Shown here: positions 17,840-42,701 of the stretch, piece by piece | Layout of the letters: the number at the start of each line of letters is the position of its first letter | Numbering within the stretch: position 1 is the first letter of the stretch | Assembly: GCF_033708015.1 (NCBI RefSeq) | Contig: NZ_CP137920.1 | Location: 1,178,001-1,242,000 of the forward strand | Length of the DNA: 64,000 bases | Source of the DNA: Proteus vulgaris | GTDB lineage: Bacteria > Pseudomonadota > Gammaproteobacteria > Enterobacterales > Enterobacteriaceae | Direction: 5' to 3' | Position numbers and translations under genes: made by a program | The notes under the pieces: model-generated | What the model was told of the DNA's origin: nothing | Database searches by the model: none | The model's input: the letters and a program-made list of their open reading frames with translations, nothing else

Positions 17840-19384
17840 ATGCATAAATTTAAAAATAAAAATATTATATTATTGTCGTTTTTTTTATTCATTTTAATAA
17901 ATAAAAAATGTTTTTCTGATGTCAATAAAAATAATTGCTTTTTAATTAATGAAATAAAGATAGAAAATGCTGATGTATTAAGTGATAAAAAACAGAATAA
18001 ACTAACATCCAAATACCTATATCGATGTTTAACATTAAATGATATACAAAGTATCGCTAATGTTATAACAAATGAATATATTAAAAAAGGTTATATCACT
18101 TCACAGGCATTTATTTCTCATGAAGACTTATCTAAGAATAAGCTTACAGTTAAAGTGATAGAGGGAAAAATAAAAGATATTTTTATTAATAATACTTCTT
18201 CTCGATTAATTAATATTATCTTTCCATTGTACAAAGAAAAAATACTTAATCTACGCGATTTAGAACATGGGCTTGAGCAACTTAATCGATTAACAACATC
18301 ACAATATACACTGGATATAAGACCAAGCGATAGTGTGGGATATTCTTCTATTTTTATTGTTCAGAATAATAAAAAACTTGCATTTAAAAATCAATTAACC
18401 GTTGATAATTCAGGTACCAAAACAACAGGTGAAATTCTATTAACGAATACTACAACCATAGATTCTTTATTTGGCTTGGGTGAACAATGGATTCTTTCAC
18501 TAAAAACAAATACTGATTTCACTCGCACTCACTATTCTCGTGCTTATACTGCAAGTGTGAATATTCCTTATGGTTATTGGTTTTATCAGTATCAAGTATC
18601 GCATAGCCAATCCTCTTATCCTTTTCAAAGCCATAATGCTCAATATCGTTATAAAAACAAAAATAGTGATCAACACTTTGATATTAGTCGTTTAGCCTAT
18701 CGTGATAATAAGCAACGAATAATATTAAAGAGTTCCCTGAAACATAAAAAAGCAAGGACACAATTAGCACAACAAAAACTATTAATAACGAGCCCTACAT
18801 TAACTTCTTTGTCATTTAGCCCTGAATATAATTTAAGTATACATAATGGATATTTAATCATTAATCCAGTTGCCGAGCTCGGGATTTCTCTTTTTGGTGC
18901 AACACCGGATTATATTGCTGAAAACTCACCTCGTAGTCATTATCGAAAACTAAGCATAAATTTAAGCTATCAACATTTATTTCTTAACAAATTTGTCTAT
19001 ATTACGTCATTTTATGGGCAATATACGCCAGATAATCTTTATAGTATAGAAAGAGTTGCAATTGATGGAATAAAGGCAACTCGTGGATATAAAGAAACAA
19101 AACTGAATGCGAATAGCGGATTTTATTGGCGTAATGAAATAAACACACCACAAATAAAATGTTTTTTAGGTAATGTTAATTTTATTTTTGCACTTGATTA
19201 TGGCGTTGCTCATTCAGATAAATATGAAACAAAGAAAAATAAAATAATAGGAAGCGCAATAGGTGCTTCTTTTGATCACTCTATTTTTTCCTCTCAGATA
19301 TTAATTAATAAGCCTATGTTTTATCCCACATCATTAAAACCTGATCATTGGTCTTTATTTTGGTCTGTTTCTTTTGTTATTTAA
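17840..19384 (+). CDS. cdiB: two-partner secretion outer-membrane transporter CdiB (TpsB/ShlB/FhaC family)
   Basis: Omp85-type beta-barrel that exports the CdiA exoprotein. A signal peptide (about residues 1-26, ending CFSDV) is followed by a POTRA region (about 35-180, with CLTLNDIQSIANVITNEYIKKGYITSQAF and KVIEGKIKDI) and a C-terminal barrel with ShlB-family strands ending in aromatic SLFWSVSFVI. At 514 residues it is somewhat shorter than many CdiB proteins. It is followed after 15 bases by cdiA, the standard cdiBA order. The gene is much more AT-rich than modF, consistent with horizontal gain. Confidence 0.92.
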   Translation: MHKFKNKNIILLSFFLFILINKKCFSDVNKNNCFLINEIKIENADVLSDKKQNKLTSKYLYRCLTLNDIQSIANVITNEYIKKGYITSQAFISHEDLSKNKLTVKVIEGKIKDIFINNTSSRLINIIFPLYKEKILNLRDLEHGLEQLNRLTTSQYTLDIRPSDSVGYSSIFIVQNNKKLAFKNQLTVDNSGTKTTGEILLTNTTTIDSLFGLGEQWILSLKTNTDFTRTHYSRAYTASVNIPYGYWFYQYQVSHSQSSYPFQSHNAQYRYKNKNSDQHFDISRLAYRDNKQRIILKSSLKHKKARTQLAQQKLLITSPTLTSLSFSPEYNLSIHNGYLIINPVAELGISLFGATPDYIAENSPRSHYRKLSINLSYQHLFLNKFVYITSFYGQYTPDNLYSIERVAIDGIKATRGYKETKLNANSGFYWRNEINTPQIKCFLGNVNFIFALDYGVAHSDKYETKKNKIIGSAIGASFDHSIFSSQILINKPMFYPTSLKPDHWSLFWSVSFVI

Positions 19385-19399
19385 GGTTTGGAGGTTTAT

Positions 19400-22300
19400 A
19401 TGCACGAAAAGGATATTTCTCGAAAACAGCGCTTAATTAGCTATAGCATTATTTATTTAACTGCTATTTACCCATTACATCCTGCTTGGAGTTCTGTAAT
19501 TACTCCCGTCGATAAAACGATAAAAATAAGTCAGCAAAATACCGTTCCTATTATTAATATTGCAACACCTAATAATGTTGGTATTTCTCATAATCAATTT
19601 CACTCATTTAATGTCGGAAAACAAGGTGCTGTACTTAATAATGCAACAACACCTGTTAATACTCAATTAGCCAAACAAGTGAATGCTAATCCCCATTTAA
19701 AAGGTAATTCAGCGCATTTAATTATTAATGAAGTAGTAGGAAATGGATATTCACAGTTATTAGGAAAATTAGAAGTTGCAGGTGAACAGGCGAAAGTGGT
19801 TATTGCCAATCCGAATGGTATTACCTGTGATGGTTGTTCATTTATTAATACCCCAGCAATTACGCTTACGACAGGAAAACCTCAATTTAGCCCTCAAGGT
19901 GCTTATTCGGCAATAGAAGTGAAAAAAGGCAGTGTTGTTATTGGAAAACAAGGCATGGATCTCCAAGCTCAGAATTATGCCGACATTATTAGCCGCAGTA
20001 TTGAGTTAAATGGAAAAATAAACGCAAAAAACCTTTCTTTAATGCAAGGTAATAACCGTATTGATTTTGAAAAAGGAGCGGTAAATAGCCTTACTGGAGA
20101 AGACATAAAGCCAACAATCTCGATTGATACTAAAGCGCTGGGAGGAATGTATGCCAATCAAATACGCCTAGTCAGCACAGAAAAGGGTGTTGGTGTTAAT
20201 TTAAGTGATATTCATACAAATCAACACAGTGTGAATTTAACGGTTGATGGAAAAATTACCTTTAATGGCAATATTCAATCAGAGCAAGATATTAATGTTA
20301 GCAGTAAAGAACTACAGGTTAATCATAATACTAAGTTAAAAGCAAAAAGAGATATTACGTTAGCCACTAATACGCTAACTAATCATAGTGAAATTATCTC
20401 AGAAAAAGATATACGTTTATTTGCAGATAAACTCACTAATAAAGGCGAAAAGGCACTTGTTCAAGCAAAAGATAACTTATGGATACAAAAAAATGCACAG
20501 GGTGATCCTAGTACTTTAATTGAAAATCAATCCGCCACGATAAAAACAGAAAAGGGTGATTTGATTATTAGAACAAAGAAATTGGTTAATACATCTTTAA
20601 GTGATTTACCCATTATTTCAAGTATTGAAGCAAACTCTACCGCTAAAAGAAGTTTTGTCGCATCATATTGGGGAAATAGTCAAGGTGTTGTTTCTATAAA
20701 CACCTATTATCCCGAATTAGAGAATTTTCCATATGAAAAATGGTTTGGCTATCTCGATTTAACAAGTACGGATGTTATTAATACTGAAAGGTATAAATAT
20801 AAGTATAGTAATTCTATAGGATATATAGATTCAGGAAAAAATATTTATATTAATGCTAATGAATTGGTCAATAAATTAGGTGTGATCCGGAGTAATAAAA
20901 ATACTATTTTAACAGGAAGTAATGCTGTAATTTCAAATTTAGGATCTGGAGAATTAAATTTATGGTACAAGTATAAGACTGCATATGATCATCTAGGGGT
21001 ATATGCAGATGAGGAGGAGGATGAAGATAATTACGATATTCTTTATGTAAGAGAACCATTGAAGTTTGAATTAGTTAATAAATTTTATTCTTGGTTACCT
21101 GATAGAAATAATTCTTTAATAATATCATCAAAGGGTAATTTAATTTTAGATTTTAAAGATAGTATTAATATAGAAACGAAGCCACCATCTAAATATTCAC
21201 CCACAAAAAGATTGATCAATAAAATTCCATCTGGTTATGAAATTTTAGCTGATAATATATTAATTAATTCTAGTTCTATTAACGTATCGTCAAATATAAA
21301 ATCAAATAATGATTTATCTATTATCTCTAATGATGATATTACAATAAAAGATGCACAACTTTTATCAGAATATTCGTTAAGTTTAATTTCAAATAAAAAT
21401 ATAGAACTTAACCAAGTAGATTTAACAGCAAAAGATAATGTTGTTCTTGCTAAAAATGGAAACATTAATTATACATTAAATCCTATTTCTGCATTTAATG
21501 AAAAAGATTTTTTAACTCCTCCTGTTATTAATGTTTCTAATTCTATTTTATTTCAATCAGGAGGGGATATTACTTTTAATAATATTGATGTTAATAATGC
21601 TAATTCTTTAAATTTAATTTCATCTGGTGATATAAAAATTCAGAGAAATGAATCAGAGCTTTTTAAAATATTGCCGTATTTCCATTTATATACTCAAGAA
21701 CCTGCATTATCAAAAACGGAAAGCTGGAAAATGCGAGGTGATATTACATTCACTTCCGGTAAAGATATTATTAGTCAAGGAATAAAATATCATAGTGATA
21801 AAACTATAACCTTTAATGCCGGAAAGGATATTTTCCTTGCCTCTAAATCAATAAAAAAAGCCGATCCTTTCTTTAGTGATGTTTATTATCCTCAATTACA
21901 ATCTAAATTATTTTCAGATAATAACCTTATTTTAAATGCTGCTCGTGATATTGATTTAAGTTCAACAGTATTAAATTCAAAAGATAAAGTCATTGTATTA
22001 GCGGGTAGAAATATAAAACTAGGTGCAAATGCTTATTCTGCTATTACAGATCCTCACGAAGATGCTCAAGATATTCAATATGCCACAGCAACGATAACCG
22101 GTAATAAAGGTATTTCTATTGCGTCATCAGGCACATTAATCACAGAAGGAAGTTCAATTAAATCAGAGGGTGACGTCACCATTTCAAGTGGTGGCAATAT
22201 TCAATTGGGCGCAGTAAGAACACATTTTCGTAAAGAGTCGGGTTCTGACTTAGAAGAACTTCGTAAACAAGTCAGTACTGAAATTAATAGTGGTAATAAT

Positions 22301-24694
22301 CTAACACTATTATCTGAAGGTAGTATTTTATTTCAGGCATCAAAATTAACTGCAAATAAAGAGATGGATATCGCCGCTAAAGGTGGATTTCTTTACGCAC
22401 AAGCGATGGAAGAATCGAGTTACTACAAAGAAGAAAAGAAAAAATGTAATAAGTGGACTTTGTGTATTACTAAAAAGAAATATACGAAAACATTTTATAA
22501 TACCAATAATAAAGTTACCGAATTTATTGCTAATGGCAATATTAATTTATTGGCTAAAGATGATATCACTTTAGAAGCGACTAAAATTGATACAGCAAAA
22601 AATGCCAAGTTAACCAGTAAAACAGGAAAAATTAATTTTAAAGCAGTAAAAAATACAGCCTTTAAACAAGTTATTACCAATTCAAAAGATATTTATATTA
22701 CTCAACGTGATCAGGGATACACCAAAGGAATATGGGTATTACCTGAACTTTATATTGGCGGAAAGCTCACAATTGATGCCCCCAAAGGCATATCTGCGGA
22801 TATTAAAGCCCAGAAAGAACAATCACTAGAACAAGCATTAACGGTTTTAAGTAACACGCCAGAATATGCTTGGCTTAACGCTCTCCAGCGCCAAGAAAAT
22901 ATTAATTGGAATTTAGTGAAAGACACTTATTCCAGTTGGGATGATAAAACTCAGCAATTAAATCCTGTTGTTGGTGCGGTTATTGCTATCGCGGTAGGGG
23001 TTGCAACTTACGGTACTGCAACGGCGGCAACCATTGGTGGAATGGCAAGTGAAGCCACCATTGCGGCAGGTGCATCAGCCAGTGTGGCTTCAACGGCATC
23101 TGTCGCAGCACAAGCAGGTTTTGCCTCTTTAGTATCGCAAGCAGCGGTATCTTTAGCCGAAAACAAAGGCAGTATTTATAAAACTATTGAATCCCTCGGC
23201 CGTAGTGATACCGCTAAATCTATTGTTACGAGTATGGTGGTTGCGGGGGCATTGCAAGGTCTTGACCAATTTATGGGTTGGGATCAGGCAATCCAAGGAG
23301 GAACCTTACCCTCAACAGGTAAGTTACTGCTTACTGATAACGCCACATGGACTCAAGTTGCTCAACGCGTTGCCTCACAGTCAGTAGTGAGTTCTACACT
23401 AGGCACAGCCATTCAAGGTGGCAGTTTTATTGATAATTTTAAAACTGCGTTATTAAACCATATCGGCAGTCAATTTCACGCAGAAGGCGCCAATCTCATT
23501 GGTGATAACGGTGCGGTATTAGGGCATGCGGGAAAGGTGTTAAGCCATGCAACATTATCTGGTTTATCTGCCCAAATTAGTGGGGGAAATGTTAATGGTG
23601 CAATTGTCGGCAGTTTAGCTGCTGAAATTGCGGCTATTTCGTTGGGTGATAATACTATTAAGGCTGAGGAGTGGCAGAAAAAATCAGAATCACAAGCTCA
23701 ATTTGTTAGATTATTTGGTGGCATTGCAGGTGGAATTTTTACTGGTGAGCCAGGTGGTGTATATAGTGGTGCTAGTTCAGCTGAGAATATATTCCGTTTC
23801 AACCATTTATTTCATGATCTTTCGATGGATTTCGATCGAGAAATACATAAGTGTGGTTCTAATGCTGAATGCTTATCAAAGATAATCGACAAATATGCAG
23901 TTTTTAGCAATGAAAATAGTTTAAAACTAGATGTTGAGTTAAATGACAACCCGTTAGCAGTTATCGAGATCAAGAAAAAAAGAATTGAAAATGCACTTGA
24001 GTTAACTAAGAGACCATATTGGGCTAGTTATCTTGGTGCTGATACAATGCAAACTGAGATAGCTAAACAATATGTTCAATATTGGAATTCACAAGATTTA
24101 GATAAAATAGACGTAAACACTCCTTCTTGGTTAAAGTTTTCATCGTGGATTTCAGAGCCAGATAACCAGTTTTTTCTTGTTAGTGCTGGTTTTTTAGTTA
24201 AAGAATTAAGCGATTTTGCTATTAGATATTTTGGCAGAAATTCAGCAATTAAAACAATCTCTGCTTCTGAAATTGGTATGAAATGGTCTTCTGGGGGAGG
24301 AAATATAAATACACAAGGAATGTCATGGGAAAACTCTATTGCGAAAAGCTTACCTGTTCATACTAGATTACCAAAAAATTTTAAAACATTTGATTTTTAT
24401 ATTGCTAAAGATAAAGTAGCAATAAGTGCAAAAAGCCTAGATACTCAAACGATGAGTAAACTTAATCGACCAAAACAAATTTATAATACAATTAAAAGTA
24501 ATATAGATGATGTTGCAAAATTTGAAGGTTATAGATTGTCAGGAGTCAATTTACATTCAGAAATGATAGCAAAACGAGAAATTTGGCTTGCTGTACCACA
24601 ATCGACAACAAAGGCTCAATGGATTGAAATTAACCGTGCGGTAGCTTATGGTAAAAGTATGAATATTGAAGTAAAGATAACGCAGGTAAAATGA
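19400..24694 (+). CDS. cdiA: contact-dependent inhibition effector CdiA (filamentous haemagglutinin-type) with PD-(D/E)XK nuclease tip
   Basis: Large secreted adhesin-toxin of 1764 residues. The start is the ATG at 19400, since GGAGG lies six bases before it. Order of parts: unusual long signal region (1-34), TPS haemagglutination domain (about 35-290) with NPHLKG near 97 and ANPNGITCDGC near 138, filamentous beta-helix repeats (about 290-1180), a hydrophobic Ala/Gly segment (about 1190-1260), a DUF637 pretoxin domain (about 1265-1460) ending in SSAENIFRFNH in place of a VENN motif, then the variable toxin. The tip carries QGMSWEN (Glu1644), TFDFY (Asp1665) and SAKSLDT (Lys1678) and ends QWIEINRAV...EVKITQV, a layout like the CdiA Bp1026b-type tRNA nuclease family. 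It is shorter than the >3000-residue CdiA of E. coli. Confidence 0.92.
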   Translation: MHEKDISRKQRLISYSIIYLTAIYPLHPAWSSVITPVDKTIKISQQNTVPIINIATPNNVGISHNQFHSFNVGKQGAVLNNATTPVNTQLAKQVNANPHLKGNSAHLIINEVVGNGYSQLLGKLEVAGEQAKVVIANPNGITCDGCSFINTPAITLTTGKPQFSPQGAYSAIEVKKGSVVIGKQGMDLQAQNYADIISRSIELNGKINAKNLSLMQGNNRIDFEKGAVNSLTGEDIKPTISIDTKALGGMYANQIRLVSTEKGVGVNLSDIHTNQHSVNLTVDGKITFNGNIQSEQDINVSSKELQVNHNTKLKAKRDITLATNTLTNHSEIISEKDIRLFADKLTNKGEKALVQAKDNLWIQKNAQGDPSTLIENQSATIKTEKGDLIIRTKKLVNTSLSDLPIISSIEANSTAKRSFVASYWGNSQGVVSINTYYPELENFPYEKWFGYLDLTSTDVINTERYKYKYSNSIGYIDSGKNIYINANELVNKLGVIRSNKNTILTGSNAVISNLGSGELNLWYKYKTAYDHLGVYADEEEDEDNYDILYVREPLKFELVNKFYSWLPDRNNSLIISSKGNLILDFKDSINIETKPPSKYSPTKRLINKIPSGYEILADNILINSSSINVSSNIKSNNDLSIISNDDITIKDAQLLSEYSLSLISNKNIELNQVDLTAKDNVVLAKNGNINYTLNPISAFNEKDFLTPPVINVSNSILFQSGGDITFNNIDVNNANSLNLISSGDIKIQRNESELFKILPYFHLYTQEPALSKTESWKMRGDITFTSGKDIISQGIKYHSDKTITFNAGKDIFLASKSIKKADPFFSDVYYPQLQSKLFSDNNLILNAARDIDLSSTVLNSKDKVIVLAGRNIKLGANAYSAITDPHEDAQDIQYATATITGNKGISIASSGTLITEGSSIKSEGDVTISSGGNIQLGAVRTHFRKESGSDLEELRKQVSTEINSGNNLTLLSEGSILFQASKLTANKEMDIAAKGGFLYAQAMEESSYYKEEKKKCNKWTLCITKKKYTKTFYNTNNKVTEFIANGNINLLAKDDITLEATKIDTAKNAKLTSKTGKINFKAVKNTAFKQVITNSKDIYITQRDQGYTKGIWVLPELYIGGKLTIDAPKGISADIKAQKEQSLEQALTVLSNTPEYAWLNALQRQENINWNLVKDTYSSWDDKTQQLNPVVGAVIAIAVGVATYGTATAATIGGMASEATIAAGASASVASTASVAAQAGFASLVSQAAVSLAENKGSIYKTIESLGRSDTAKSIVTSMVVAGALQGLDQFMGWDQAIQGGTLPSTGKLLLTDNATWTQVAQRVASQSVVSSTLGTAIQGGSFIDNFKTALLNHIGSQFHAEGANLIGDNGAVLGHAGKVLSHATLSGLSAQISGGNVNGAIVGSLAAEIAAISLGDNTIKAEEWQKKSESQAQFVRLFGGIAGGIFTGEPGGVYSGASSAENIFRFNHLFHDLSMDFDREIHKCGSNAECLSKIIDKYAVFSNENSLKLDVELNDNPLAVIEIKKKRIENALELTKRPYWASYLGADTMQTEIAKQYVQYWNSQDLDKIDVNTPSWLKFSSWISEPDNQFFLVSAGFLVKELSDFAIRYFGRNSAIKTISASEIGMKWSSGGGNINTQGMSWENSIAKSLPVHTRLPKNFKTFDFYIAKDKVAISAKSLDTQTMSKLNRPKQIYNTIKSNIDDVAKFEGYRLSGVNLHSEMIAKREIWLAVPQSTTKAQWIEINRAVAYGKSMNIEVKITQVK

Positions 24695-25200
24695 TGACGT
24701 TTATTAACGATAATGAGTATTGTGCTTTGATAGTAATGACAGATAAATTTTTTTGCTTAAATACTGAATCTGGTTATGGGCTAATGACAATCGATCCGAA
24801 TTTTTCATCAATTATACTTTCTTTAACGTGTTCAAATAAGGAGCTTGGTGAAAGTTTAATTAAAGTTTTAGAAAATAGTCGAACTCAGCTTAAAGATGAG
24901 GAATATGACAAACTCTTTAAGAAGGAAAATATAAAAAAAAACTGGAATTCATGGCTAGAATTATTACGGTATAAATATGATTATCGCTCAAAACGCCAAC
25001 TTTTAGCTAATATGCTAAACTGTTCTATTTATCTTTCTAATAACAAAATATTAATTTCACCTTCTTACCATTCAAGTCTTGAAGGGTGGGAAGGAATTGG
25101 GGCATCCCATAAGGTTATTTTATCGTTAGATAGCTCATTTGATGAGATAGGTTCGGGTATTCGTCTTGCATTTAGTCGGTGTACTACTAAGAAATTTTAA
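24691..25200 (+). CDS. cdiI: CdiI immunity protein for the resident CdiA toxin
   Basis: A 169-residue acidic cytoplasmic protein whose start overlaps the cdiA stop (ATGATG at 24691-24696; either ATG could start). Position directly after cdiA and clear similarity to the immunity genes at 32118 and 40386, which follow homologous toxins, identify it as the cognate CdiI. Shared C-terminal features include NMLNCSIYL, ILISPSYH, EGWEGIG and LAFSRC. It should bind and block the nuclease tip of CdiA. Confidence 0.85.
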   Translation: MMTFINDNEYCALIVMTDKFFCLNTESGYGLMTIDPNFSSIILSLTCSNKELGESLIKVLENSRTQLKDEEYDKLFKKENIKKNWNSWLELLRYKYDYRSKRQLLANMLNCSIYLSNNKILISPSYHSSLEGWEGIGASHKVILSLDSSFDEIGSGIRLAFSRCTTKKF

Positions 25201-25345: not shown

Positions 25346-25585
25346 ATGTTTCTTTTTGAAGCTCTTAATGAACTATATGAAAATTACCCAGTAGGCTATG
25401 AAGGTAAAACGAAAATAGCTGACTATTTTCGTTTTATTGTTCCAACTATTTATGCAACGATAAAAGATATTCCTGAAGAGTTAAGAAAATATATTGTCGT
25501 CTCTGATAGTCTTGATTTTACCAAAGATAGATTGCTTGATAATAATAAAATTAGCGATTATTTTACTCGAATGTATTCAGAATAA
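25346..25585 (+). pseudogene. 3' fragment of a 200-residue orphan immunity gene
   Basis: The frame (79 residues) aligns with the last third of the complete immunity protein at 42099-42701: MFLFEAL against MFYFEAL, then YEGKTKIADYFRFIVPTIYA and IVVSDSLDFTKDRLLDNN. The 5' two-thirds is missing. This is the first of five truncated copies that recur immediately left of orphan cassettes. Confidence 0.8.
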
Positions 25586-25693: not shown

Positions 25694-25732
25694 AAAAGCA
25701 ATCATGCTAATAATTAACAATGAATGGCGATA

Positions 25733-25942
25733 ATTACCCGAACTCTATATTGGCGGGTAGCTCACAATTTATACACCACAAGGTATCTCTGCGGATATTA
25801 AATCCCAAAAAGAACAATCATTAACGGTTTTGCTTCTTTAGTTTCGTAAGCGACTGTTTCTTTAGCTGAAAACAAAGGCAATATATCTAAAACTCTAGAG
25901 TCATTAGGTCGTAGTGACACTGTCAAGTCAGTCGTTACCAGT
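25733..25942 (+). pseudogene. orphan cassette A: decayed internal cdiA segment
   Basis: Homologous to cdiA from about 22735 (PELYIGG region), but carrying TAG in place of the AAG in GGCGGAAAG, a 12-base in-frame loss, a 274-base deletion (counterpart 22849-23122) joined at GGTTTT, and TAA in place of CAA. It runs without a break into the intact DUF637 frame at 25943. Confidence 0.85.
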
Positions 25943-28083: not shown

Positions 28084-28122
28084 AAAAGCAATCATGCTAA
28101 TAATTAACAATGAATGGCGATA

Positions 28123-30350: not shown

Positions 30351-30389
30351 AAAAGCAATCATGCTAATAATTAACAATGAATGGCGATA

Positions 30390-32639: not shown

Positions 32640-32677
32640 AATCACCTTATACTAATTATATGTAAGGTGATTTTTTG
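32640..32677 (+). terminator. terminator after cassette C immunity gene
   Basis: AATCACCTTAT ... TAAGGTGATTTTTT hairpin with T tract. Confidence 0.8.
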
Positions 32678-32693
32678 TTATATGAGTTTATTT

Positions 32694-33872: not shown

Positions 33873-33987
33873 TATATATAATGTTTTTTAATAATTGTAA
33901 ATAATAAAATGAAAAATAGAATTATCTTATCTGGTTTTATTTTTTAATAAAACTAATAATGTTAATAATTAATAAAGAATAGCAATA

Positions 33988-34197
33988 ATTACCCGAACTC
34001 TATATTGGCGGGTAGCTCACAATTTATACACCACAAGGTATCTCTGCGGATATTAAATCCCAAAAAGAACAATCATTAACGGTTTTGCTTCTTTAGTTTC
34101 GTAAGCGACTGTTTCTTTAGCTGAAAACAAAGGCAATATATCTAAAACTCTAGAGTCATTAGGTCGTAGTGACACTGTCAAGTCAGTCGTTACCAGT
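33988..34197 (+). pseudogene. orphan cassette D: decayed internal cdiA segment
   Basis: Same relic; its variants (TTAGCTGAA, ATATATCT, AAAACTCTAGAG) match cassette A. The spacer to its left is not the usual immunity-fragment spacer but resembles the one after cassette F. Confidence 0.85.
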
Positions 34198-35553
34198 ATG
34201 GTGGTTGCGGGGGCATTGCAAGGTCTTGACCAATTTATGGGTTGGGATCAGGCAATCCAAGGAGGAACCTTACCCTCAACAGGTAAGTTACTGCTTACTG
34301 ATAACGCCACATGGACTCAAGTTGCTCAACGCGTTGCCTCACAGTCAGTAGTGAGTTCTACACTAGGCACAGCCATTCAAGGTGGCAGTTTTATTGATAA
34401 TTTTAAAACTGCGTTATTAAACCATATCGGCAGTCAATTTCACGCAGAAGGCGCCAATCTCATTGGTGATAACGGTGCGGTATTAGGGCATGCGGGAAAG
34501 GTGTTAAGCCATGCAACATTATCTGGTTTATCTGCCCAAATTAGTGGGGGAAATGTTAATGGTGCAATTGTCGGCAGTTTAGCTGCTGAAATTGCGGCTA
34601 TTTCGTTGGGTGATAATACTATTAAGGCTGAGGAGTGGCATAAAAAATCAGAATCACAAGCTCAATTTGTTAGGTTATTCGGTGGTATAGCAGGCGGTAT
34701 TTTTACTGGTGAGCCTGGTGGTGTATATAGTGGTGCAAGAGGAGCTGAAAATAGTTTCCGTTACAATTATCTCTCTCACCATCAGCAAAAGTTAATGGAG
34801 AAAGAATTATCTACTGAAACTAATTATTTTAAAAAGACAGCAATTTATCTTAAATGGCTATCAGTAGATATAGGACAAGATACAGGGTTTAATGCAGGTC
34901 TTATAGCAGGTATACCAACAGGATTGTATGAAACGATTGAAGGGCTCGCTTCTCTTGCTACAAATCCGTTAGAAACATACCAAGCTATCAAAGCGGTTAT
35001 TCAAAGTGATAATGTTTTCGATACATTAACTCAAGCGGTTAAACAATCTTATATCGATCGTATTGAAAAACTGGAAGCAGAATATCAAAAAGCAGGTGTA
35101 TCTGGTTCATTTAATGCGGGTGTTGAAAGCGGGAAACTTATTTTTGATCTCGTAGGTCTATTTGCTGGTGGTGCTGGAGTTGCGAAAGGAAGTTCTCTGC
35201 TTATAGCTAAGACATCAGCTAAGATTGCTAGGCAAAATAAATTTAGTATAAAAAATTTATTAGATTCAGCGAATAAGCCTATAAATTCACAAGGCTTATC
35301 TGAGGCGGCTAGAGCATGGGAAAAACATGCAGGTAGAAAGGGAGGGTCTTTTGAACCATTAAAAGGAAATATTGAGAATAAAAATGCGCTAGCAAGTATT
35401 TTTATAGAAAAATTATTGAAAAACCCATCCACAATTAAAACCGAATTATCTAGAGGTGGAATTGAATATAGATTACCTAATGGGCAAGGTGTTCGATATA
35501 ATGCAGATGGTTCTTTTTCTGGTTTTCTTGATCCTAAAAGAGGTAATAACTAA
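34198..35553 (+). CDS. orphan cassette D: CdiA C-terminal fragment with unassigned small toxin tip
   Basis: A 451-residue orphan tail. The first ~445 bases appear identical to cdiA 23231-23676. Type I linker to ARGAENSFRYNYL, the same entry domain as cassettes B and E, then at AKTSAKI it switches to a unique ~105-residue tip (QGLSEAARAWEKHAGRKGG, then RLPNGQGVRYNADGSFSGFL). The end GVRYNADGSFSGFLDP is a pattern I recall from several small RNase-type polymorphic toxins, so an RNase activity is likely but not shown. Confidence 0.7.
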   Translation: MVVAGALQGLDQFMGWDQAIQGGTLPSTGKLLLTDNATWTQVAQRVASQSVVSSTLGTAIQGGSFIDNFKTALLNHIGSQFHAEGANLIGDNGAVLGHAGKVLSHATLSGLSAQISGGNVNGAIVGSLAAEIAAISLGDNTIKAEEWHKKSESQAQFVRLFGGIAGGIFTGEPGGVYSGARGAENSFRYNYLSHHQQKLMEKELSTETNYFKKTAIYLKWLSVDIGQDTGFNAGLIAGIPTGLYETIEGLASLATNPLETYQAIKAVIQSDNVFDTLTQAVKQSYIDRIEKLEAEYQKAGVSGSFNAGVESGKLIFDLVGLFAGGAGVAKGSSLLIAKTSAKIARQNKFSIKNLLDSANKPINSQGLSEAARAWEKHAGRKGGSFEPLKGNIENKNALASIFIEKLLKNPSTIKTELSRGGIEYRLPNGQGVRYNADGSFSGFLDPKRGNN

Positions 35554-35795
35554 TGATCGATTCTAACTTTGAAATTGATTTTGTAAGTGACAATAAATAT
35601 AAGAATATTACTGTTGAAATTTCATATAAAAAACAAATACTTTGTCAATTAAATAAAGATAGTGGAACCGATAAAATAGAAATTGAATTTTTTAATGATA
35701 GTCGGTATTTAAGTGAAGATGTGAAGCATAAATTTAATTTAGATGATTTTATGGCCATTTTGAATAGTGCAAAATTAGATTTAATTAATGCTTAA
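35553..35795 (+). CDS. orphan cassette D immunity protein
   Basis: An 80-residue acidic protein whose ATG overlaps the toxin stop (TAATG). Assigned by position; no family recognised. Short length suits a small RNase tip. Confidence 0.65.
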   Translation: MIDSNFEIDFVSDNKYKNITVEISYKKQILCQLNKDSGTDKIEIEFFNDSRYLSEDVKHKFNLDDFMAILNSAKLDLINA

Positions 35796-35827: not shown

Positions 35828-35885
35828 TATAACCATCACTTAATATTTTTATTAAAACACTAACTAAGTGATGGTTTTCTTTTTT
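35828..35885. terminator. variant array terminator after cassette D
   Basis: AACCATCACTTA ... TAAGTGATGGTTTTCTTTTTT; a diverged form of the array terminator with better-paired arms. Confidence 0.75.
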
Positions 35886-35909
35886 ATTGAAAAGCAACCA
35901 TATTAATAA

Positions 35910-35975
35910 TTAACACAGCGTCGCGATGATCACCTGAACAGTATTAAATAACGCTGTTACGGTATCATTAATATG
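35910..35975 (-). pseudogene. duplicated 3' end of modE (22 codons including stop)
   Basis: Aligns without gaps to 42830-42895, the true modE 3' end, with 55 of 66 bases identical. Read on the minus strand it gives HINDTVTALFNTVQVIIATLC-stop against HINDSVTALFNADQVIVATLC-stop. The terminator and spacer to its left are also homologous to those before the real modE. Confidence 0.9.
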
Positions 35976-36351: not shown

Positions 36352-36390
36352 AAAAGCAATCATGCTAATAATTAACAATGAATGGCGATA

Positions 36391-36600
36391 ATTACCCGAA
36401 CTCTATATTGGCGGGTAGCTCACAATTTATACACCACAAGGTATCTCTGCGGATATTAAATCCCAAAAAGAACAATCATTAACGGTTTTGCTTCTTTAGT
36501 TTCGTAAGCGACTGTTTCTTTAGTTGAAAACAAAGGCAATATCTCTAAAACCCTAGAGTCATTAGGTCGTAGTGACACTGTCAAGTCAGTCGTTACCAGT
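36391..36600 (+). pseudogene. orphan cassette E: decayed internal cdiA segment
   Basis: Same relic, with the cassette B variants (TTAGTTGAA, AAAACCCTAGAG). Confidence 0.85.
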
Positions 36601-37953
36601 ATGGTGGTTGCGGGGGCATTGCAAGGTCTTGACCAATTTATGGGTTGGGATCAGGCAATCCAAGGAGGAACCTTACCCTCAACAGGTAAGTTACTGCTTA
36701 CTGATAACGCCACATGGGATCAAGTTGCTCAACGCGTTGCCTCACAGTCAGTAGTGAGTTCTACACTAGGCACAGCCATTCAAGGTGGCAGTTTTATTGA
36801 TAATTTTAAAACTGCGTTATTAAACCATATCGGCAGTCAATTTCACGCAGAAGGCGCCAATCTCATTGGTGATAACGGTGCGGTATTAGGGCATGCAGGA
36901 AAGGTTTTAAGCCATGCAACATTATCTGGTTTATCTGCCCAAATTAGTGGGGGAAATGTTAATGGTACTGTTATAGGTAGCCTAGCTGCTGAAATTGCGG
37001 CTATTTCTCTGGGTGATAATACTATTAAGGCTGAGGAGTGGCATAAAAAATCAGAATCACAAGCTCAATTTGTTAGGTTATTCGGTGGTATAGCAGGCGG
37101 TATTTTTACTGGTGAGCCTGGTGGTGTATATAGTGGTGCAAGAGGGGCTGAAAATAGTTTCCGTTACAATTATCTCTCTCACCATCAGCAAAAGTTAATG
37201 GAGAAAGAATTATCTACTGAAACTAATTATTTTAAAAAGACAGCAATTTATCTTAAATGGCTATCAGTAGATATAGGACAAGATACAGGGTTTAATGCAG
37301 GTCTTATAGCAGGTATACCAACAGGATTGTATGAAACGATTGAAGGGCTCGCTTCTCTTGCTACAAATCCACTCGAAACATACCAAGCTATTAAAGCAGT
37401 TATTCAAAGTGATAATGCTTTCGATACATTAACTCAAACAGTTAAACAATCGTATATCGAGCGTATTGAAAAACTGGAAGCAGAATATCAAAAAGCAGGT
37501 GTATCTGGTTCATTTAATGCGGGTGTTGAAAGCGGGAAACTTATTTTTGATCTCGTAGGCTTATTTGCTGGTGGTGCTGGAGTTGCGAAAGGAAGTTCTC
37601 AGCTTATAGCTAAGACATCAGCTAAGATTACCACAAGAAATAAATTGATTTCTTCTATAAAAAGTGGACAAGTAGGATTAAGTGATCCTGATGCAGTTGA
37701 TTTAATAAAAGCTGATATGCTTAAAAACTTTTATAGCTATAAAGCTCCATCAGGTATTATTGCTGGTTATATAGACAAAAAGGGTATTTATTATGTAACG
37801 GAAGGTAACCATAGGATGGTTGCTGCAGTGGAAATATATAATGAAATAGGAGAAATAAAATATATTAATCAATTGTTAGATAATGGAAGCTGGACTAAAA
37901 TAGAAAATCCTATAGTTGATTCAAAGCCATTACCGGTAAGAAAAATAAAGTGA
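36601..37953 (+). CDS. orphan cassette E: duplicate of cassette B toxin fragment (ParB-like tip)
   Basis: A 450-residue orphan tail. From the entry domain onward the product is the same as cassette B, including EGNHR at 401-405. The DUF637 part instead follows the cdiA/D pattern (VASQSVVSS, ALLNHIG), so it is a mosaic that received a conversion tract. One substitution of note is NGTVIGSLA. No Shine-Dalgarno before the first Met. Confidence 0.7.
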   Translation: MVVAGALQGLDQFMGWDQAIQGGTLPSTGKLLLTDNATWDQVAQRVASQSVVSSTLGTAIQGGSFIDNFKTALLNHIGSQFHAEGANLIGDNGAVLGHAGKVLSHATLSGLSAQISGGNVNGTVIGSLAAEIAAISLGDNTIKAEEWHKKSESQAQFVRLFGGIAGGIFTGEPGGVYSGARGAENSFRYNYLSHHQQKLMEKELSTETNYFKKTAIYLKWLSVDIGQDTGFNAGLIAGIPTGLYETIEGLASLATNPLETYQAIKAVIQSDNAFDTLTQTVKQSYIERIEKLEAEYQKAGVSGSFNAGVESGKLIFDLVGLFAGGAGVAKGSSQLIAKTSAKITTRNKLISSIKSGQVGLSDPDAVDLIKADMLKNFYSYKAPSGIIAGYIDKKGIYYVTEGNHRMVAAVEIYNEIGEIKYINQLLDNGSWTKIENPIVDSKPLPVRKIK

Positions 37954-37959: not shown

Positions 37960-38292
37960 ATGACTAAAAATGAAATATACATAGATATGATGTATTGGAT
38001 TTTGCCTCAATTAAGAAATATTCAGTCTAGAGGAATGATAGCAAAAGCAAAAGATAAATCTTGTTATTACGAATTACAGTTAATTCATAATTTACCCAAA
38101 AAAATACTTAATCAAGATTTTGATGAAAGTGATATTTCATTTTTAAATTTTCAAGCTAAAACATATACTGAAAAATGCAATTCAAAAATAAGTATATTAT
38201 ATGATGGTAATATCAAGTATATTAAAATGTTATTTAACTTGGTTCCTAATGAATTACGACATCAATTACGATGGAATGGGCCAACCAATTAA
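37960..38292 (+). CDS. orphan cassette E immunity protein (duplicate of cassette B)
   Basis: A 110-residue product identical to that of 29692-30024; six bases after the toxin stop. Confidence 0.7.
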   Translation: MTKNEIYIDMMYWILPQLRNIQSRGMIAKAKDKSCYYELQLIHNLPKKILNQDFDESDISFLNFQAKTYTEKCNSKISILYDGNIKYIKMLFNLVPNELRHQLRWNGPTN

Positions 38293-38618: not shown

Positions 38619-38657
38619 AAAAGCAATCATGCTAATAATTAACAATGAATGGCGATA

Positions 38658-38867
38658 ATTACCCGAACTCTATATTGGCGGGTAGCTCACAATTTATACA
38701 CCACAAGGTATCTCTGCGGATATTAAATCCCAAAAAGAACAATCATTAACGGTTTTGCTTCTTTAGTTTCGTAAGCGACTGTTTCTTTAGTTGAAAACAA
38801 AGGCAATATCTCTAAAACCCTAGAGTCATTAGGTCGTAGTGACACTGTCAAGTCAGTCGTTACCAGT
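38658..38867 (+). pseudogene. orphan cassette F: decayed internal cdiA segment
   Basis: Same relic with cassette B/E variants, unlike its duplication partner C, which has AAAACTCTAGAG. Confidence 0.85.
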
Positions 38868-40382
38868 ATGGTGGTTGCGGGGGCATTGCAAGGTCTTGAC
38901 CAATTTATGGGTTGGGATCAGGCAATCCAAGGAGGAACCTTACCCTCAACAGGTAAGTTATTGCTTACTGATAATGCCACATGGACTCAAGTTGCTCAAC
39001 GCGTTGCCTCACAGTCAGTAGTGAGTTCTACACTAGGCACAGCCATTCAAGGTGGCAGTTTTATTGATAATTTTAAAACTGCGTTATTAAACCATATCGG
39101 CAGTCAATTTCACGCAGAAGGCGCCAATCTCATTGGTGATAACGGTGCCGTATTAGGACATGCAGGAAAGGTTTTAAGTCATTCCGTCGTTGCGGGTATT
39201 AGTGCAGAAATTGCAGGAGGCAGTGTTACCGGCGCAGTCGCAGGTGCCTTGGCGGCAGAGATAGCGGCGATATCGCTCAACGATAATTTAATTAAGACAG
39301 AGCAGTGGCGAGAACAGCAGGCTCAGAGAAGCCGTCTAGTGGGTGCTTTTGCTGGTTTACTTGCAACAGGTAAAGCGGAGGGCGTTATTAGTGCGGCTAA
39401 TTCAGCAGAATTAGTCGAACGTTATAATCGACAACTTCATTTAGAAGAAACAAAAGCAATTAATAAATTAGCCAATGGAGATAAAAATAAATTAGAGCGC
39501 TTATTAGCTGCGTCTTGTCGAAAAGTTTATTGCGTTGCTCAAGAATCATTAGATTCATCTGAAAGAAATTATTATGAATCTTTAATGAAAAAATATCCAT
39601 ATACACATGTGGAAGATTCATTACTTTCAGATTATTGGATCACAAAAGAGAAAACTAGGATAGGTGGAAATTATCCCTTATTTAGTGGTTATGAAAAAAT
39701 CAAATTATTTACTTACACTGAAGCCGATAAATTAACAGATAGTGAAACATTTTCAAAAAATCAATGGATTGAAAATGCGAGTAAATTTACTGGATGGGAT
39801 AAAAAAACACTTGAAAACTTAACTTCAGTAATTGCAATAGGTGCATCAATAACTAGGCGTAATGGTAATAGAATTTATGGTCCAATAAGTTTTAATGCCA
39901 ATAAAACGCAGTTTATACCAATAAATGATATTTATTTTATTGACAAATCAGGAAATAAAATCACAATGAAATGGATGTACCAAGGTACAATAGTAGAGCA
40001 AGGAATGACATTTGAGAATTACATTGGTCTATCAAATAAACGACTTACACGATTACATCTTAATGCCAAAACATTTGACTATTATGATGGTAATACAGGT
40101 GAATATATTAGTGTAAAGACATTAAATACCCAGACGGAATCAAGACTTAAAAATCCAAAATCAATAGAAAATATATTAAATAAATATATTTCAACTATGG
40201 ATAAATATAGCGGTGATGCGCATGGAACTACAGAAATTTCTAAAAAAGATGTGAAATTAAAAACATTAGAATTAGGCGTTCCAGAAAAAACCAATAAAGA
40301 ACAATGGGATGCTATTAATGATTCTATCAAAAATGCATCATCAAAAAATATAAAAGTTAATATTACGATTATTGAGGAATAG
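38868..40382 (+). CDS. orphan cassette F: duplicate of cassette C toxin fragment (PD-(D/E)XK tip)
   Basis: A 504-residue orphan tail with the same linker and nuclease tip as cassette C. The differences seen in the tip are Ala to Thr before IVEQ and Lys to Glu before the last residue. The DUF637 part follows the cdiA pattern (KLLLTDNATW, ALLNHIG) rather than that of C. Conserved QGMTFEN, TFDYY and SVKT imply an intact nuclease. Confidence 0.78.
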   Translation: MVVAGALQGLDQFMGWDQAIQGGTLPSTGKLLLTDNATWTQVAQRVASQSVVSSTLGTAIQGGSFIDNFKTALLNHIGSQFHAEGANLIGDNGAVLGHAGKVLSHSVVAGISAEIAGGSVTGAVAGALAAEIAAISLNDNLIKTEQWREQQAQRSRLVGAFAGLLATGKAEGVISAANSAELVERYNRQLHLEETKAINKLANGDKNKLERLLAASCRKVYCVAQESLDSSERNYYESLMKKYPYTHVEDSLLSDYWITKEKTRIGGNYPLFSGYEKIKLFTYTEADKLTDSETFSKNQWIENASKFTGWDKKTLENLTSVIAIGASITRRNGNRIYGPISFNANKTQFIPINDIYFIDKSGNKITMKWMYQGTIVEQGMTFENYIGLSNKRLTRLHLNAKTFDYYDGNTGEYISVKTLNTQTESRLKNPKSIENILNKYISTMDKYSGDAHGTTEISKKDVKLKTLELGVPEKTNKEQWDAINDSIKNASSKNIKVNITIIEE

Positions 40383-40385: not shown

Positions 40386-40892
40386 ATGTTTAAATTAAAA
40401 AATAATAAATTAAGAGCAAGTGTTTATTATAATGATACTCATTATATTTTATTAACTTTTTCTGGTCACTCTATCTATATAATGGATCTAAAAAAAGGCT
40501 ATAAAGTTTTACCTAATGATCTTCTTGATGCAGAATTAGGTTATTATGCAAAACTCGCTCTGATTAAAAGTGAGCAAATTAAAGGAAATTCAGATCAGTT
40601 TCATCAAATGTATAATGATAAAAAACCTTATCAAGACTGGATAAAAAAAATAATCGAAGAGTATGGTTATAAAAATAAAACAGCACTTTTTAATAATATG
40701 AATCGATGTAGCTTAGATCTTACAGATGATGAAATTACTATTAGTCCTCTAAATCATTTACGTATGGATCATTGGGTAGGTGAGGGAATACCTGATAGTG
40801 CAATTATTACATTAAAAACCAATTGCAGTGACGAGGTCTTAGGTGCATCAATAAAAGAAGCTTTTACACGTTGTATTAGTCGTAAAATTTAA
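40386..40892 (+). CDS. orphan cassette F immunity protein (CdiI homologue)
   Basis: A 168-residue near-copy of 32118-32624 with four substitutions (Ala/Thr in YNDxHY, Glu/Gly in QIKxNS, Asp/Gly in EEYxYK, and a terminal Ala/Ile). Homologous to the resident CdiI. Confidence 0.8.
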   Translation: MFKLKNNKLRASVYYNDTHYILLTFSGHSIYIMDLKKGYKVLPNDLLDAELGYYAKLALIKSEQIKGNSDQFHQMYNDKKPYQDWIKKIIEEYGYKNKTALFNNMNRCSLDLTDDEITISPLNHLRMDHWVGEGIPDSAIITLKTNCSDEVLGASIKEAFTRCISRKI

Positions 40893-40945: not shown

Positions 40946-41096
40946 TTATATCTATATAAAAATATTTTTTTAAAATTGTAAATAATTAAATGAAAAATAG
41001 AATTATCTTAGCTGGTTTTATTTTTGAATAAAACTAACTATGCTAATACTTTAAGGTAATGATATTTAAAAAATTAAATAATGCTAGGGAGCATAT

Positions 41097-41210
41097 ATGG
41101 GATTGTTACTTGATATAAACAGGTATCCTAGTCAAGCAAGAAATCATTCATGGATTGCTATAGATAAAAATGGAAATTTAATAACTACTACCCCTGGAGA
41201 AATAAAGTGA
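41097..41210 (+). pseudogene. chimeric mini-ORF: immunity-gene 5' end fused to a toxin 3' end
   Basis: A 37-codon frame. The first 26 codons match the start of the 200-residue immunity gene at 42099 (MGLLLDIN, then QARNHSWIA, DKNG), including its upstream sequence AATGCTAGGGA. The last codons (NLITTTPGEIK-stop) look like a toxin C-terminus and overlap the next immunity start as toxin genes do here. The joint lies in GATAAAAATGGA. Confidence 0.7.
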
Positions 41211-41521
41211 TGACAAAGGAAGCTTTTTTAAAATTTAAGGATTCAGAAAATAAAATTATTATTCCGTACCTCAAAAAAGTATTTCCATCATTGAAATCAG
41301 CATATTGTTTATATCATATGATAGAACAATTAGAGGATGTTTATACTTACTTAGTTAATAGCAAGGATGTTATTTTTATTGAAGTGTCGAGGTTAAATAA
41401 TTCTATTAACCATACGGATATTTTATCAATTAAAGATTATGCTATTATGAAAAAGGGGAAACAATATCATCGTTATATGAAAGAGATTATTGCTTTATCA
41501 AATAGTGAGATAATTAAATGA
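41210..41521 (+). CDS. orphan immunity protein, diverged member of the cassette A family
   Basis: A 103-residue protein starting at the ATG at 41210, within TGATG after the chimeric frame. Similar to the genes at 27475 and 41724 around CLYHMIEQLEDVYTYLVN and EVSRLNNS, so it protects against a related but different toxin, which is absent from this window. Confidence 0.65.
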   Translation: MTKEAFLKFKDSENKIIIPYLKKVFPSLKSAYCLYHMIEQLEDVYTYLVNSKDVIFIEVSRLNNSINHTDILSIKDYAIMKKGKQYHRYMKEIIALSNSEIIK

Positions 41522-41587: not shown

Positions 41588-41726
41588 AGAAATTGTATGA
41601 AAGAGTTATTATATTAGATAAATATATAGGTATTAATAAATTTACTAAAAACTCAACGAATATCATAACAATTTTAACGGATAATTGAGGTAATTTAATA
41701 ACAGTAATATCAGGAAGACTAAAATG
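41588..41726 (+). pseudogene. tail of a cassette A-type toxin
   Basis: Matches 27348-27478 (KLYERVIILDKYIGI... to GRLK-stop), but GGATAATTG now contains an in-frame TGA, and the 5' part is gone. It still overlaps the following immunity ATG. Confidence 0.8.
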
Positions 41727-42056
41727 AAATTAATTGGTTCTAGAAAAGAAATGATTATTAAGGATAGATTAATTAAAAATGAAGGTTCTATTCTAAAAAA
41801 TGAAAAAATTAATTGTCTTTTAAAAAATAGATTCTCTAATATAATAAGTGTCTATTGTTTGGAGCATGTTTTAGAAGAAGATTATGATCTGTATACATTA
41901 TTAGTTAATAAAGATTCTATTGTTGAGTTTGAATTATCTAGATTTAATGGTGAATTTAAATATATCAATATATCATCATTAGATTTATATTCAAAAAAAA
42001 TAAAGGATAAAAAATTAAGGTTAAAACTACTGGTTGCGGTAAATTTATCTAAATAA
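41724..42056 (+). CDS. orphan immunity protein, near-identical to that of cassette A
   Basis: A 110-residue protein differing from 27475-27807 at two visible residues (Asp/Tyr after EFK; Pro/Ser near the end). The toxin it would answer is only a relic here. Confidence 0.7.
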   Translation: MKLIGSRKEMIIKDRLIKNEGSILKNEKINCLLKNRFSNIISVYCLEHVLEEDYDLYTLLVNKDSIVEFELSRFNGEFKYINISSLDLYSKKIKDKKLRLKLLVAVNLSK

Positions 42057-42098
42057 TATGTGTGAAAATTATTTATTAAATAATGCTAGGGAACATAT

Positions 42099-42701
42099 AT
42101 GGGATTGTTACTTGATATAAACTGGCATCCTGGTCAAGCAAGAAATCATTCATGGATTGCTATGGATAAAAATGGATGTATTTCAATGATGCTAAATAAT
42201 GGGTATGGATGGTTACCTAAATGTATATTAAAAATAAATAATATAAAAGAATCACTTAATGATTTATGTGAATATATCGATGGAGACTCTGAAAAATATA
42301 GTAATGATGTAAATAAAAAAGGTGAGTACCTTATAGACCTATATTCTAGCTGGGTATATAAAAAATATAAAAATAAACAAGAAATAATTAATAGTTTTAA
42401 TTTTAGGTTGGAAAATAAAAAAAATTGTGATGCTGAATTAGCAACTAAAATGGGAATGTTTTATTTTGAAGCATTAGAGGGACAATCTATAGGAGAAGAT
42501 TATCCCATTGGCTATGAAGGTGAAACCAAAATGGGTGACTATTTTCGTTTTATTGTTCCTACTATTTGTGCAACGATAGAAGATATTCCTGAAGGGCTAA
42601 GAAAATATATTGTCGTCTCTGATAGTCTTGATTTTACCAAAGATAGATTGCTTGATAACAATAAAATTAGCGATTATTTTACTCGCATGTATTCAGAATA
42701 A
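42099..42701 (+). CDS. orphan 200-residue immunity protein, only complete copy
   Basis: A 200-residue acidic protein with ARNHSWIAMDKNGCISMMLNNGYGWLP near the N-terminus and DYFRFIVPTI ... IVVSDSLDFTKDRLLDNN near the C-terminus. It is the parent of the five truncated copies and of the chimeric frame at 41097. Being the last gene before the array terminator and modE, it was probably the original terminal cdiI. No toxin for it remains. Family not recognised. Confidence 0.65.
   Translation: MGLLLDINWHPGQARNHSWIAMDKNGCISMMLNNGYGWLPKCILKINNIKESLNDLCEYIDGDSEKYSNDVNKKGEYLIDLYSSWVYKKYKNKQEIINSFNFRLENKKNCDAELATKMGMFYFEALEGQSIGEDYPIGYEGETKMGDYFRFIVPTICATIEDIPEGLRKYIVVSDSLDFTKDRLLDNNKISDYFTRMYSE

What the first reader, a model, noticed from the sequence alone, without database searches (positions are those of the whole stretch)
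17840..42701. CDI locus with an archive of six orphan toxin-immunity cassettes
After a full cdiB-cdiA-cdiI, six tandem cassettes (DUF637 starts at 25943, 28333, 30600, 34198, 36601, 38868) each join a decayed piece of cdiA to an intact, in-frame pretoxin-toxin frame plus immunity gene. At least four toxin tips are present. The orphan frames lack signal, TPS domain and ribosome-binding site, so they look silent until recombined into cdiA; the DUF637 reading frame is the same in all seven copies, so a crossover there would be productive. Orphan CDI modules are known in general; an array of this length with a uniform relic is unusual.
Basis: partly seen in the sequence, partly recalled or inferred. 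Interest (0 to 1): 0.9.

Follow-up and report, generated by a model that had tools for sequence, protein, structure and literature searches.

The report
Spare-toxin archive behind Proteus CDI gene
Behind a toxin gene predicted to be used against neighbouring bacteria, this Proteus chromosome holds six spare toxin-immunity cassettes (four distinct toxin ends, two of them present twice), and a clean sequence mosaic indicates that the working gene and the spares have likely exchanged DNA, which would let the lineage change its weapon while likely keeping old immunities.

Summary
cdiB-cdiA-cdiI is followed by six DUF637 cassettes at the stated starts. Corrections: cassettes 5-6 are a 4.9-kb copy (98.6%) of cassettes 2-3, so there are four distinct orphan tips; the array also holds lone immunity genes and a truncated seventh cassette.

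The uniform relic is explained. Every cassette begins at the same joint, the last codons of neighbouring modE fused to mid-cdiA, as a tandem-duplication junction would look. The same joint is in 5 of 19 other Proteus genomes.

Recombination at DUF637 is recorded in the sequence. cdiA is a mosaic: 26 informative sites match P. faecis, one matches neither, the next 36 match cassette 4, which equals cdiA over 420 nt. Between the duplicated blocks, differences cluster in DUF637 (6.5-8% versus 0.6%).

The locus lies between gpmA and modE across the genus. Tips A, B and C sit on intact cdiA frames in other Proteus genomes. Other species mostly keep immunity genes and truncate toxins.

Silent CDI/TpsA cassettes are a known kind; E. 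coli EC869 has eleven. This is a well-preserved member with a readable recombination record. Expression and switching in culture are untested.

The parts
17840..19384 (+). cdiB, outer-membrane transporter (POTRA_2, POTRA_3, ShlB)
   Evidence: Pfam
19400..24694 (+). cdiA; ATG 19400 follows GGAGG (the ORF caller starts at TTG 19388). TPS, DUF637, CdiA_helical, EC869-like nuclease tip
23225..23232 (+). mosaic breakpoint in cdiA: P. faecis-like to the left, identical to cassette 4 to the right (to 23656)
24691..25200 (+). cdiI immunity gene (PF07262) for cdiA's own tip
25346..25585 (+). 3' remnant of immunity gene I_X (complete at 42099-42701); such remnants precede joints 1, 2, 3, 5 and 6
25707..25942 (+). 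joint 1 (modE 3' end fused to cdiA) plus relic
25943..27478 (+). cassette 1: DUF637-pretoxin-tip A
27475..27807 (+). immunity I_A, overlaps the toxin stop
28097..28332 (+). joint 2 plus relic
28333..29685 (+). cassette 2: DUF637-pretoxin-tip B
29692..30024 (+). immunity I_B
30364..30599 (+). joint 3 plus relic
30600..32114 (+). cassette 3: DUF637-pretoxin-tip C (EC869-like, PF21111)
32118..32624 (+). immunity I_C (PF07262)
32667..33212 (+). lone SUKH-like (SMI1/KNR4) immunity gene
   Evidence: below Pfam cut-off
33268..33795 (+). second SUKH-like paralogue
   Evidence: below Pfam cut-off
33962..34197 (+). joint 4 plus relic
34198..35553 (+). cassette 4: DUF637-pretoxin-tip D; 34201-34620 identical to cdiA 23237-23656
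35553..35795 (+). immunity I_D, overlaps the toxin stop by one base
35831..35975 (-). fragment of the modE 3' end and its flank, behind I_D (I_D lies next to modE in G002, G011, G013, G016)
36365..36600 (+). joint 5 plus relic
36601..37953 (+). cassette 5: tip B, duplicate of cassette 2
37960..38292 (+). immunity I_B, second copy
38632..38867 (+). joint 6 plus relic
38868..40382 (+). cassette 6: tip C, duplicate of cassette 3
40386..40892 (+). immunity I_C, second copy
41207..41521 (+). lone immunity I_E (directly behind an A-type tip on cdiA in G001, G005, G007, G008)
41590..42055 (+). truncated seventh copy: end of tip A plus immunity I_A
42099..42701 (+). immunity I_X, complete terminal copy
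42830..43675 (-). modE-like regulator gene (name recalled from its sequence, not from a family search), right border; its 3' end is in every joint

Best explanation
This is a contact-dependent growth inhibition locus whose downstream array stores toxin-immunity modules on copies of one likely ancient duplication joint, and whose active cdiA has likely been re-tipped by homologous recombination with such modules inside DUF637. Shown: anatomy, shared joint, copied 4.9-kb block, clean mosaic breakpoint in cdiA, and the same tips on cdiA elsewhere in Proteus. Inferred: the origin of the joint by tandem duplication; the direction of the exchange; that the orphan toxin frames are not translated; that the immunity genes are expressed and protect against kin. 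Untested: switching in culture. Likely steps: (1) a tandem duplication joined the modE 3' end to mid-cdiA and made the first cassette; (2) DUF637 and inter-cassette repeats then let units be duplicated, exchanged and loaded; (3) selection likely keeps the immunity genes always, and the toxin tips when they cycle through cdiA.
For: Anatomy. One joint in all six window relics and in 5 of 19 other Proteus genomes (G001, G002, G007, G009, G014). Mosaic cdiA: in 23117-23536, 63 sites separate P. faecis cdiA (G006) from cassette 4; cdiA matches P. faecis at the first 26, neither at one, cassette 4 at the last 36; the switch lies between 23224 and 23233, Fisher p=1.3e-16 with the cut at 23236. Cassette 4 equals cdiA over 420/420 nt, whereas the best of 19 other genomes is 89.8%. 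Run test: cdiA-cassette 4 has a 41-site run, p<=1e-4 in 10,000 shuffles; 18 of 21 pairs reach p<0.05. Duplicated block: 42 of 69 differences fall in the two DUF637 5' halves (23/288 and 19/291), 27 in the other 4,307 nt. Active carriers: cassette 1 module ~ cdiA 3' module of G003 and G002 (93-94%), cassette 3 ~ G011, P. penneri (92.4%), tip B in frame on G013 cdiA (96.6%). Movement between species: I_E 99% DNA identity in P. mirabilis against 87% for modA and 72% for cdiB. Tip constraint: dN/dS 0.12-0.20 for A and B against their nearest relatives, including B against the G001 orphan copy (0.12).
Against: The mosaic does not give direction: cassette 4 may have been copied from cdiA. The P. faecis cdiA used as reference (G006) is itself broken into several frames. 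Pairs among cassettes 4, 5 and 6 show no significant runs (3 of 21 pairs). dN/dS may reflect selection while the tips sat on an active cdiA; C against G011 is higher (0.32), and A against G001 and G007 is 0.34-0.41. Cassette 5 and 6 tips are too recent copies to show constraint. In Neisseria the same kind of exchange is rare and costs immunity (PMC3848433, passages). In the other 19 genomes full-length matches are 47 for immunity genes and 17 for toxins, 14 of the latter at the cdiA position. Tip D was not matched on any of the 53 Proteus-like CdiA clusters. A second assembly of nearly the same chromosome length holds an orphan of this array, so the array may be stable over short times.
Confidence: 0.8

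Rival explanations
1. Immunity bank: the array is kept for its immunity genes, which likely protect against kin carrying other tips; orphan toxins are passengers or fossils and are not reloaded.
For: Other Proteus genomes hold 47 full-length immunity matches against 17 full-length toxin matches, often an intact immunity gene behind a toxin 3' stub. Window immunity-only genes I_E, I_X and the SUKH pair. EC93 orphan CdiI is expressed (PMC3150448, passages); the meningococcal authors prefer this view (PMC3848433, passages).
Against: Here all six toxin frames are open and in register and tips A and B are constrained; cdiA itself shows a mosaic with a cassette at DUF637.
Confidence: 0.4
2. Whole-allele transfer: each cdiA tip and each cassette was brought in from other strains by double crossovers, with little or no exchange inside one chromosome.
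For: Some modules are shared between species at higher identity than flanking genes, as I_E with P. mirabilis; cassette 4 carries a modE fragment behind I_D, as in species where I_D lies next to modE.
Against: The cdiA-cassette 4 tract is 420/420 identical, while the best of the 19 other genomes is 89.8%; the copied 4.9-kb block is intragenomic.
Confidence: 0.25
3. Orphan toxins act inside the cell, like toxin-antitoxin pairs, from internal starts.
For: Immunity genes follow directly or overlap the toxin stop; a paper on Salmonella Rhs elements as toxin-antitoxin modules (PMC7043789, title and start of abstract in a search listing).
Against: No Shine-Dalgarno before the internal ATG; promoter-like matches are at the chance level, 102 against 102.9 expected.
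Confidence: 0.08

Closest known systems
Orphan cdiA-CT/cdiI arrays, E. coli EC869 (11 pairs), EC93, Y. pseudotuberculosis (PMC3150448, passages read)
   Same: Displaced toxin-immunity pairs downstream of cdiBAI, mostly without start signals, exchange between loci; EC869's own tip is of the family of cdiA's tip here
   Different: There the retained upstream cdiA piece varies in length and the border is VENN; here every cassette has the same left joint and a DUF637 landing stretch
Meningococcal tpsC cassettes with IORFs (PMC3848433, passages read)
   Same: Tandem 5'-truncated tpsA copies with immunity genes; recombination with tpsA in homologous 5' parts; double-crossover and circle models proposed
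   Different: Neisseria takes up DNA; Proteus cassettes share a joint made from a neighbouring gene, and the record here is a breakpoint in the active gene
Rhs main/orphan loci of Salmonella (PMC3967940, passages read)
   Same: Orphan tip loaded onto the main gene by homologous recombination, with evidence from evolved cultures
   Different: Rhs delivery protein, one orphan, not a two-partner system
T6SS immunity-gene arrays of Vibrio cholerae (PMC5361080, passages read)
   Same: Successive displacement leaves old immunity genes downstream, as in most Proteus species here
   Different: Effectors are lost there; the window genome keeps the toxin frames
P. mirabilis BL95 CDI on ICEPm2 (PMC11278526, passages read)
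   Same: Same host genus, cdiBAI with two orphan sets, tips shared with other species
   Different: On an ICE, VENN-type cdiA, two orphans, no shared joint mentioned in the passages read

Membership tests
CDI two-partner system | cdiB with POTRA and ShlB domains next to cdiA with a TPS domain | tested here: met
CDI two-partner system | C-terminal toxin of a known CDI family and cognate immunity gene | tested here: met
   PF21111 and PF07262; EC869 CdiA-CT 4g6u at 1.1e-70
CDI two-partner system | contact-dependent inhibition blocked by CdiI | not testable with these tools
   needs culture
Orphan cdiA-CT/cdiI module | cdiA 3' fragment plus immunity gene downstream of cdiBAI, no TPS domain | tested here: met
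Orphan cdiA-CT/cdiI module | no translation start signals for the toxin fragment | tested here: met
   no Shine-Dalgarno before the ATG codons (by eye); absence of translation itself untested
Orphan cdiA-CT/cdiI module | same tip fused to full-length cdiA elsewhere | tested here: met
   A, B, C on open cdiA frames in Proteus. D: only a more distant match (70%) in a 3240-aa frame of another genus, identity of that gene not examined
Orphan cdiA-CT/cdiI module | VENN border | tested here: inconclusive
   AEN/AEL motifs at the pretoxin border, VENN-like by eye, no literal VENN in these; homology ends there for B and D, earlier for A and C
Silent-cassette switching system | recombination between cassette and expression gene in one lineage | tested here: inconclusive
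   mosaic in cdiA and identical tract; direction and rate unknown
Rhs system | YD-repeat delivery protein | tested here: not met
   Pfam of the main locus proteins names none

The most novel reading that the evidence does not exclude
Each cassette carries its own portable homology (joint, relic, DUF637), so a unit popped out as a circle between two repeats can re-enter at cdiA's DUF637: it loads its tip and pushes the old tip with its immunity gene into first orphan place behind a fresh copy of the relic. Re-tipping then loses no immunity, which answers the standing objection to orphan reloading, and the uniform relic is the scar of every such event.
Probability: 0.3. Interest if true: 0.75.

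Novelty: new member of a known kind. Interest (0 to 1): 0.52.

Why it matters
Papers from 2011 to 2016 (PMC3150448, PMC3848433, PMC4927057) leave it open whether orphan CDI modules are a weapon store, an immunity bank or fossils. This locus offers a natural record at base resolution: a mosaic cdiA with one clean breakpoint, a copied block whose differences sit in DUF637, and a joint that marks every unit and recurs in the genus. Its intact cassettes and the degraded arrays of sister species make the readings testable side by side.

Tried and rejected
Rejected: six independent tips (cassettes 5-6 copy 2-3). Relic as pure decay: part of the difference is allelic. Own promoters: promoter-like matches at the chance level, terminator-like 11 against 7.4 expected, sd 2.8. 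Displacement order read from the nearest species: P. faecis G006 matches tip A only in the pretoxin and its cdiA is broken, so no claim. G019 as an active carrier of tip C: its cdiA frame ends before the tip, so it is not counted.

Led nowhere: structure of tip B (pLDDT 45.5) and tip A (pLDDT 42.6), too poor, no fold search made. Solved-structure search: tip A only chance-level hits (best E 0.071), tip B one weak match (E 0.039). NCBIfam named no cassette at curated level; its one cassette hit, a beta-lactamase model at 16.8 bits against a cut-off of 600, is chance. The literature search with modE and gpmA was noisy because 'mode' is a common word. Searches listed no paper whose title or abstract start concerns this gpmA-modE locus; only these searches back that.
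Full report
Observation. The window lies in a 4.37-Mb Proteus genome (G000; genus inferred from its relatives). cdiB, cdiA and cdiI have the expected domains, and cdiA's own tip matches EC869 CdiA-CT (4g6u, E 1.1e-70). The six orphan frames are open for 481-542 codons stop to stop and each is followed by an immunity gene. Their ATG is an internal Met of DUF637 without a Shine-Dalgarno, while cdiA, I_A and I_C have AGGA- or GGAGG-like sites (by eye).

A self-comparison shows that 27798-32683 (cassettes 2 and 3) and 36067-40951 (cassettes 5 and 6) are one block in two copies, 98.6% identical. There are thus four orphan tips: A (cassette 1), B (2, 5), C (3, 6; EC869-like) and D (4; matches 6d7y at 1.4e-9). 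A and B have no firm relative of known structure. The array also holds two SUKH-like genes, the lone immunity genes I_E and I_X, and a truncated tip-A end with a second I_A.

The relic explained. All six cassettes start alike: the 3' end of modE (last codons on the other strand) runs into cdiA at about window 22738, across a short shared sequence. The true modE stands at the right end of the locus. This is what a tandem duplication from mid-cdiA to modE would leave. A pattern search of the 20 stretches held for 19 other Proteus genomes found the same joint in five (G001, G002, G007, G009, G014), once each. In G007 the piece behind the joint is undecayed, open from the joint for 666 codons, and 97% identical to that strain's own cdiA over 812 columns. 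So the joint is likely old, and the decay (stops and a 286-nt deletion shared by all six here) later. The relics of G001 and G002 also lack the cdiA stretch that follows, so a deletion there is not confined to this genome.

Recombination at DUF637. In 23117-23236 the six relics differ from cdiA at 27-29 of 120 sites; in 23237-23536 cassette 4 is identical (300/300), cassette 5 differs at 3, cassette 6 at 5, cassettes 1, 2 and 3 at 10, 26 and 22. Cassette 4 and cdiA stay identical over 420 nt, while the nearest of the 19 other genomes is 89.8% there; left of the point cdiA is 98.3% identical to P. faecis G006. At the 63 sites separating that P. faecis cdiA from cassette 4, cdiA follows P. faecis 26 times, then one neither, then cassette 4 36 times without exception; the switch lies between 23224 and 23233. 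G006's cdiA is itself broken into several frames; it serves only as the nearest sequence. The 41-site run is beyond all 10,000 shuffles; 18 of 21 pairs of copies reach p<0.05, the three pairs among cassettes 4, 5 and 6 do not. In the copied block, 42 of 69 differences fall in the two DUF637 5' halves (23 of 288 nt, 19 of 291 nt), 27 in the other 4,307 nt, and cassettes 5 and 6 are there closer to cdiA than cassettes 2 and 3 are. Exchange between cdiA and cassettes through DUF637 is the simplest reading. Its direction is not settled.

The genus. gpmA, cdi genes and modE are seen on one contig in 17 of 19 other genomes (in G004, P. cibi, only a cdi remnant; in G007 without a cdiB match); in G001 the locus is split over two contigs and of G010 only a 3-kb contig was read. 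The cdiA frame runs open to its tip in 14 of the 19: A-type tips in G001, G005, G003, G007, G008 and G002 (95-96% aa in G003 and G002, 74-78% in the others); C in G014 and G011; the window's own tip in G018, G016, G017 and G012; B fused in frame in G013, where part of DUF637 is missing; G015 has a tip not matched by these queries. G019 carries tip C behind a cdiA frame that ends before it; G009 and G006 are interrupted; G004 is a remnant; G010 is incomplete. Cassette 1 from DUF637 to behind I_A is collinear with cdiA's end in G003 and G002 (93-94%), and cassette 3 with that of G011 (92.4%). In the protein search 701 proteins passed, 120 were listed, and the first 53 (73% identity or more over residues 1000-1420; some partial) were taken as Proteus-like: tips fall into B (9), a PF14436 type, EndoU by recall (5), a further type (11), EC869-like C/own (13), A or A-like (11) and four others; those labelled P. 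mirabilis alone show at least five types. I_E is 99% identical in P. mirabilis, where modA is 87% and cdiB 72%, so at least some modules move between species. Outside the window genome, matches to the window's tip and immunity queries are 47 full-length and 54 partial for immunity genes, 17 full-length and 18 partial for toxins; 14 of the 17 lie at the cdiA position. In the window they are 12 and 8, 7 and 1. Families without a query here are not counted. At most two DUF637 copies per other genome were seen. In 198 genomes of the wider family (own included) 13 had a match to the cassette DUF637 protein; the highest other count was eight matches, on five contigs.

Selection. Tip A against G003 and G002 has dN/dS 0.14 and 0.20; tip B against G013 (on cdiA) and G001 (orphan) 0.12 each; tip C 0.17 (G014) and 0.32 (G011); I_A, I_B and I_C 0-0.32; A against the more distant copies of G001, G007 and P. 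mirabilis 0.41, 0.34, 0.23; the own tip 0.08 (one comparison, with G019, dropped because that copy holds a stop). This fits tips that are used at times, or that reached the store recently.

Expression. Promoter-like matches equal the shuffled expectation (102 against 102.9), terminator-like 11 against 7.4, sd 2.8. Nothing here tells whether orphans are transcribed. In E. coli EC93 the orphan CdiI is made and the orphan toxin appears not to be (PMC3150448, passages).

Known kinds. Orphan CDI arrays up to eleven pairs (PMC3150448), tpsC cassettes with circle and double-crossover models (PMC3848433), Rhs reloading in evolved Salmonella (PMC3967940), the fossil and repository models (PMC4927057) and Vibrio immunity arrays (PMC5361080) are all in print; passages of each were read, and of a review that tells of up to 15 orphan immunity genes in P. 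aeruginosa (PMC9086364). The Proteus array belongs with them. What is its own, as far as the passages read go: a shared joint built from modE, a DUF637 landing stretch on each unit, and a mosaic cdiA.

Verdict. A known kind, with an unusually legible record of exchange. Switching in life is likely but untested.

Noticed in passing
L039 (G007) 10275-12684: Orphan cassette open from the modE joint itself, 666 codons, its tip like the PF14436-type CdiA clusters by eye, with a following ORF; its cdiA piece is 97% like that strain's own cdiA. This genome has no cdiB match beside its cdiA.
   Followed up: partly
L049 (G013) 4188-8576: cdiA fused in frame to tip B with the first part of DUF637 missing (stop-to-stop 1462 aa): a natural re-tipping by another route.
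   Followed up: partly
window 25270-25321: Perfect 8-nt repeat AATTAAAT, 6.5 copies, between cdiI and the first I_X remnant; meaning unknown.
   Followed up: no
window 35831-36005: Behind I_D: a modE 3' fragment, then a piece of the I_B end; suggests that cassette 4 came from an array in which I_D was last before modE.
   Followed up: partly
L033 12456-13931, L034 11748-13187, L035 12122-13549, L042 12128-13561 (L035 and L042 read as reverse complement): Open frames of 475-491 codons between the array and modE in four other Proteus genomes; not identified.
   Followed up: no
G000 contig C1: Eight TPS-domain matches in this genome, so further two-partner loci may exist besides this one.
   Followed up: no
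P0134: An orphan cluster of this array is also on a 4,175,806-bp contig, 112 bp longer than the window's chromosome: a sister isolate or second assembly.
   Followed up: no
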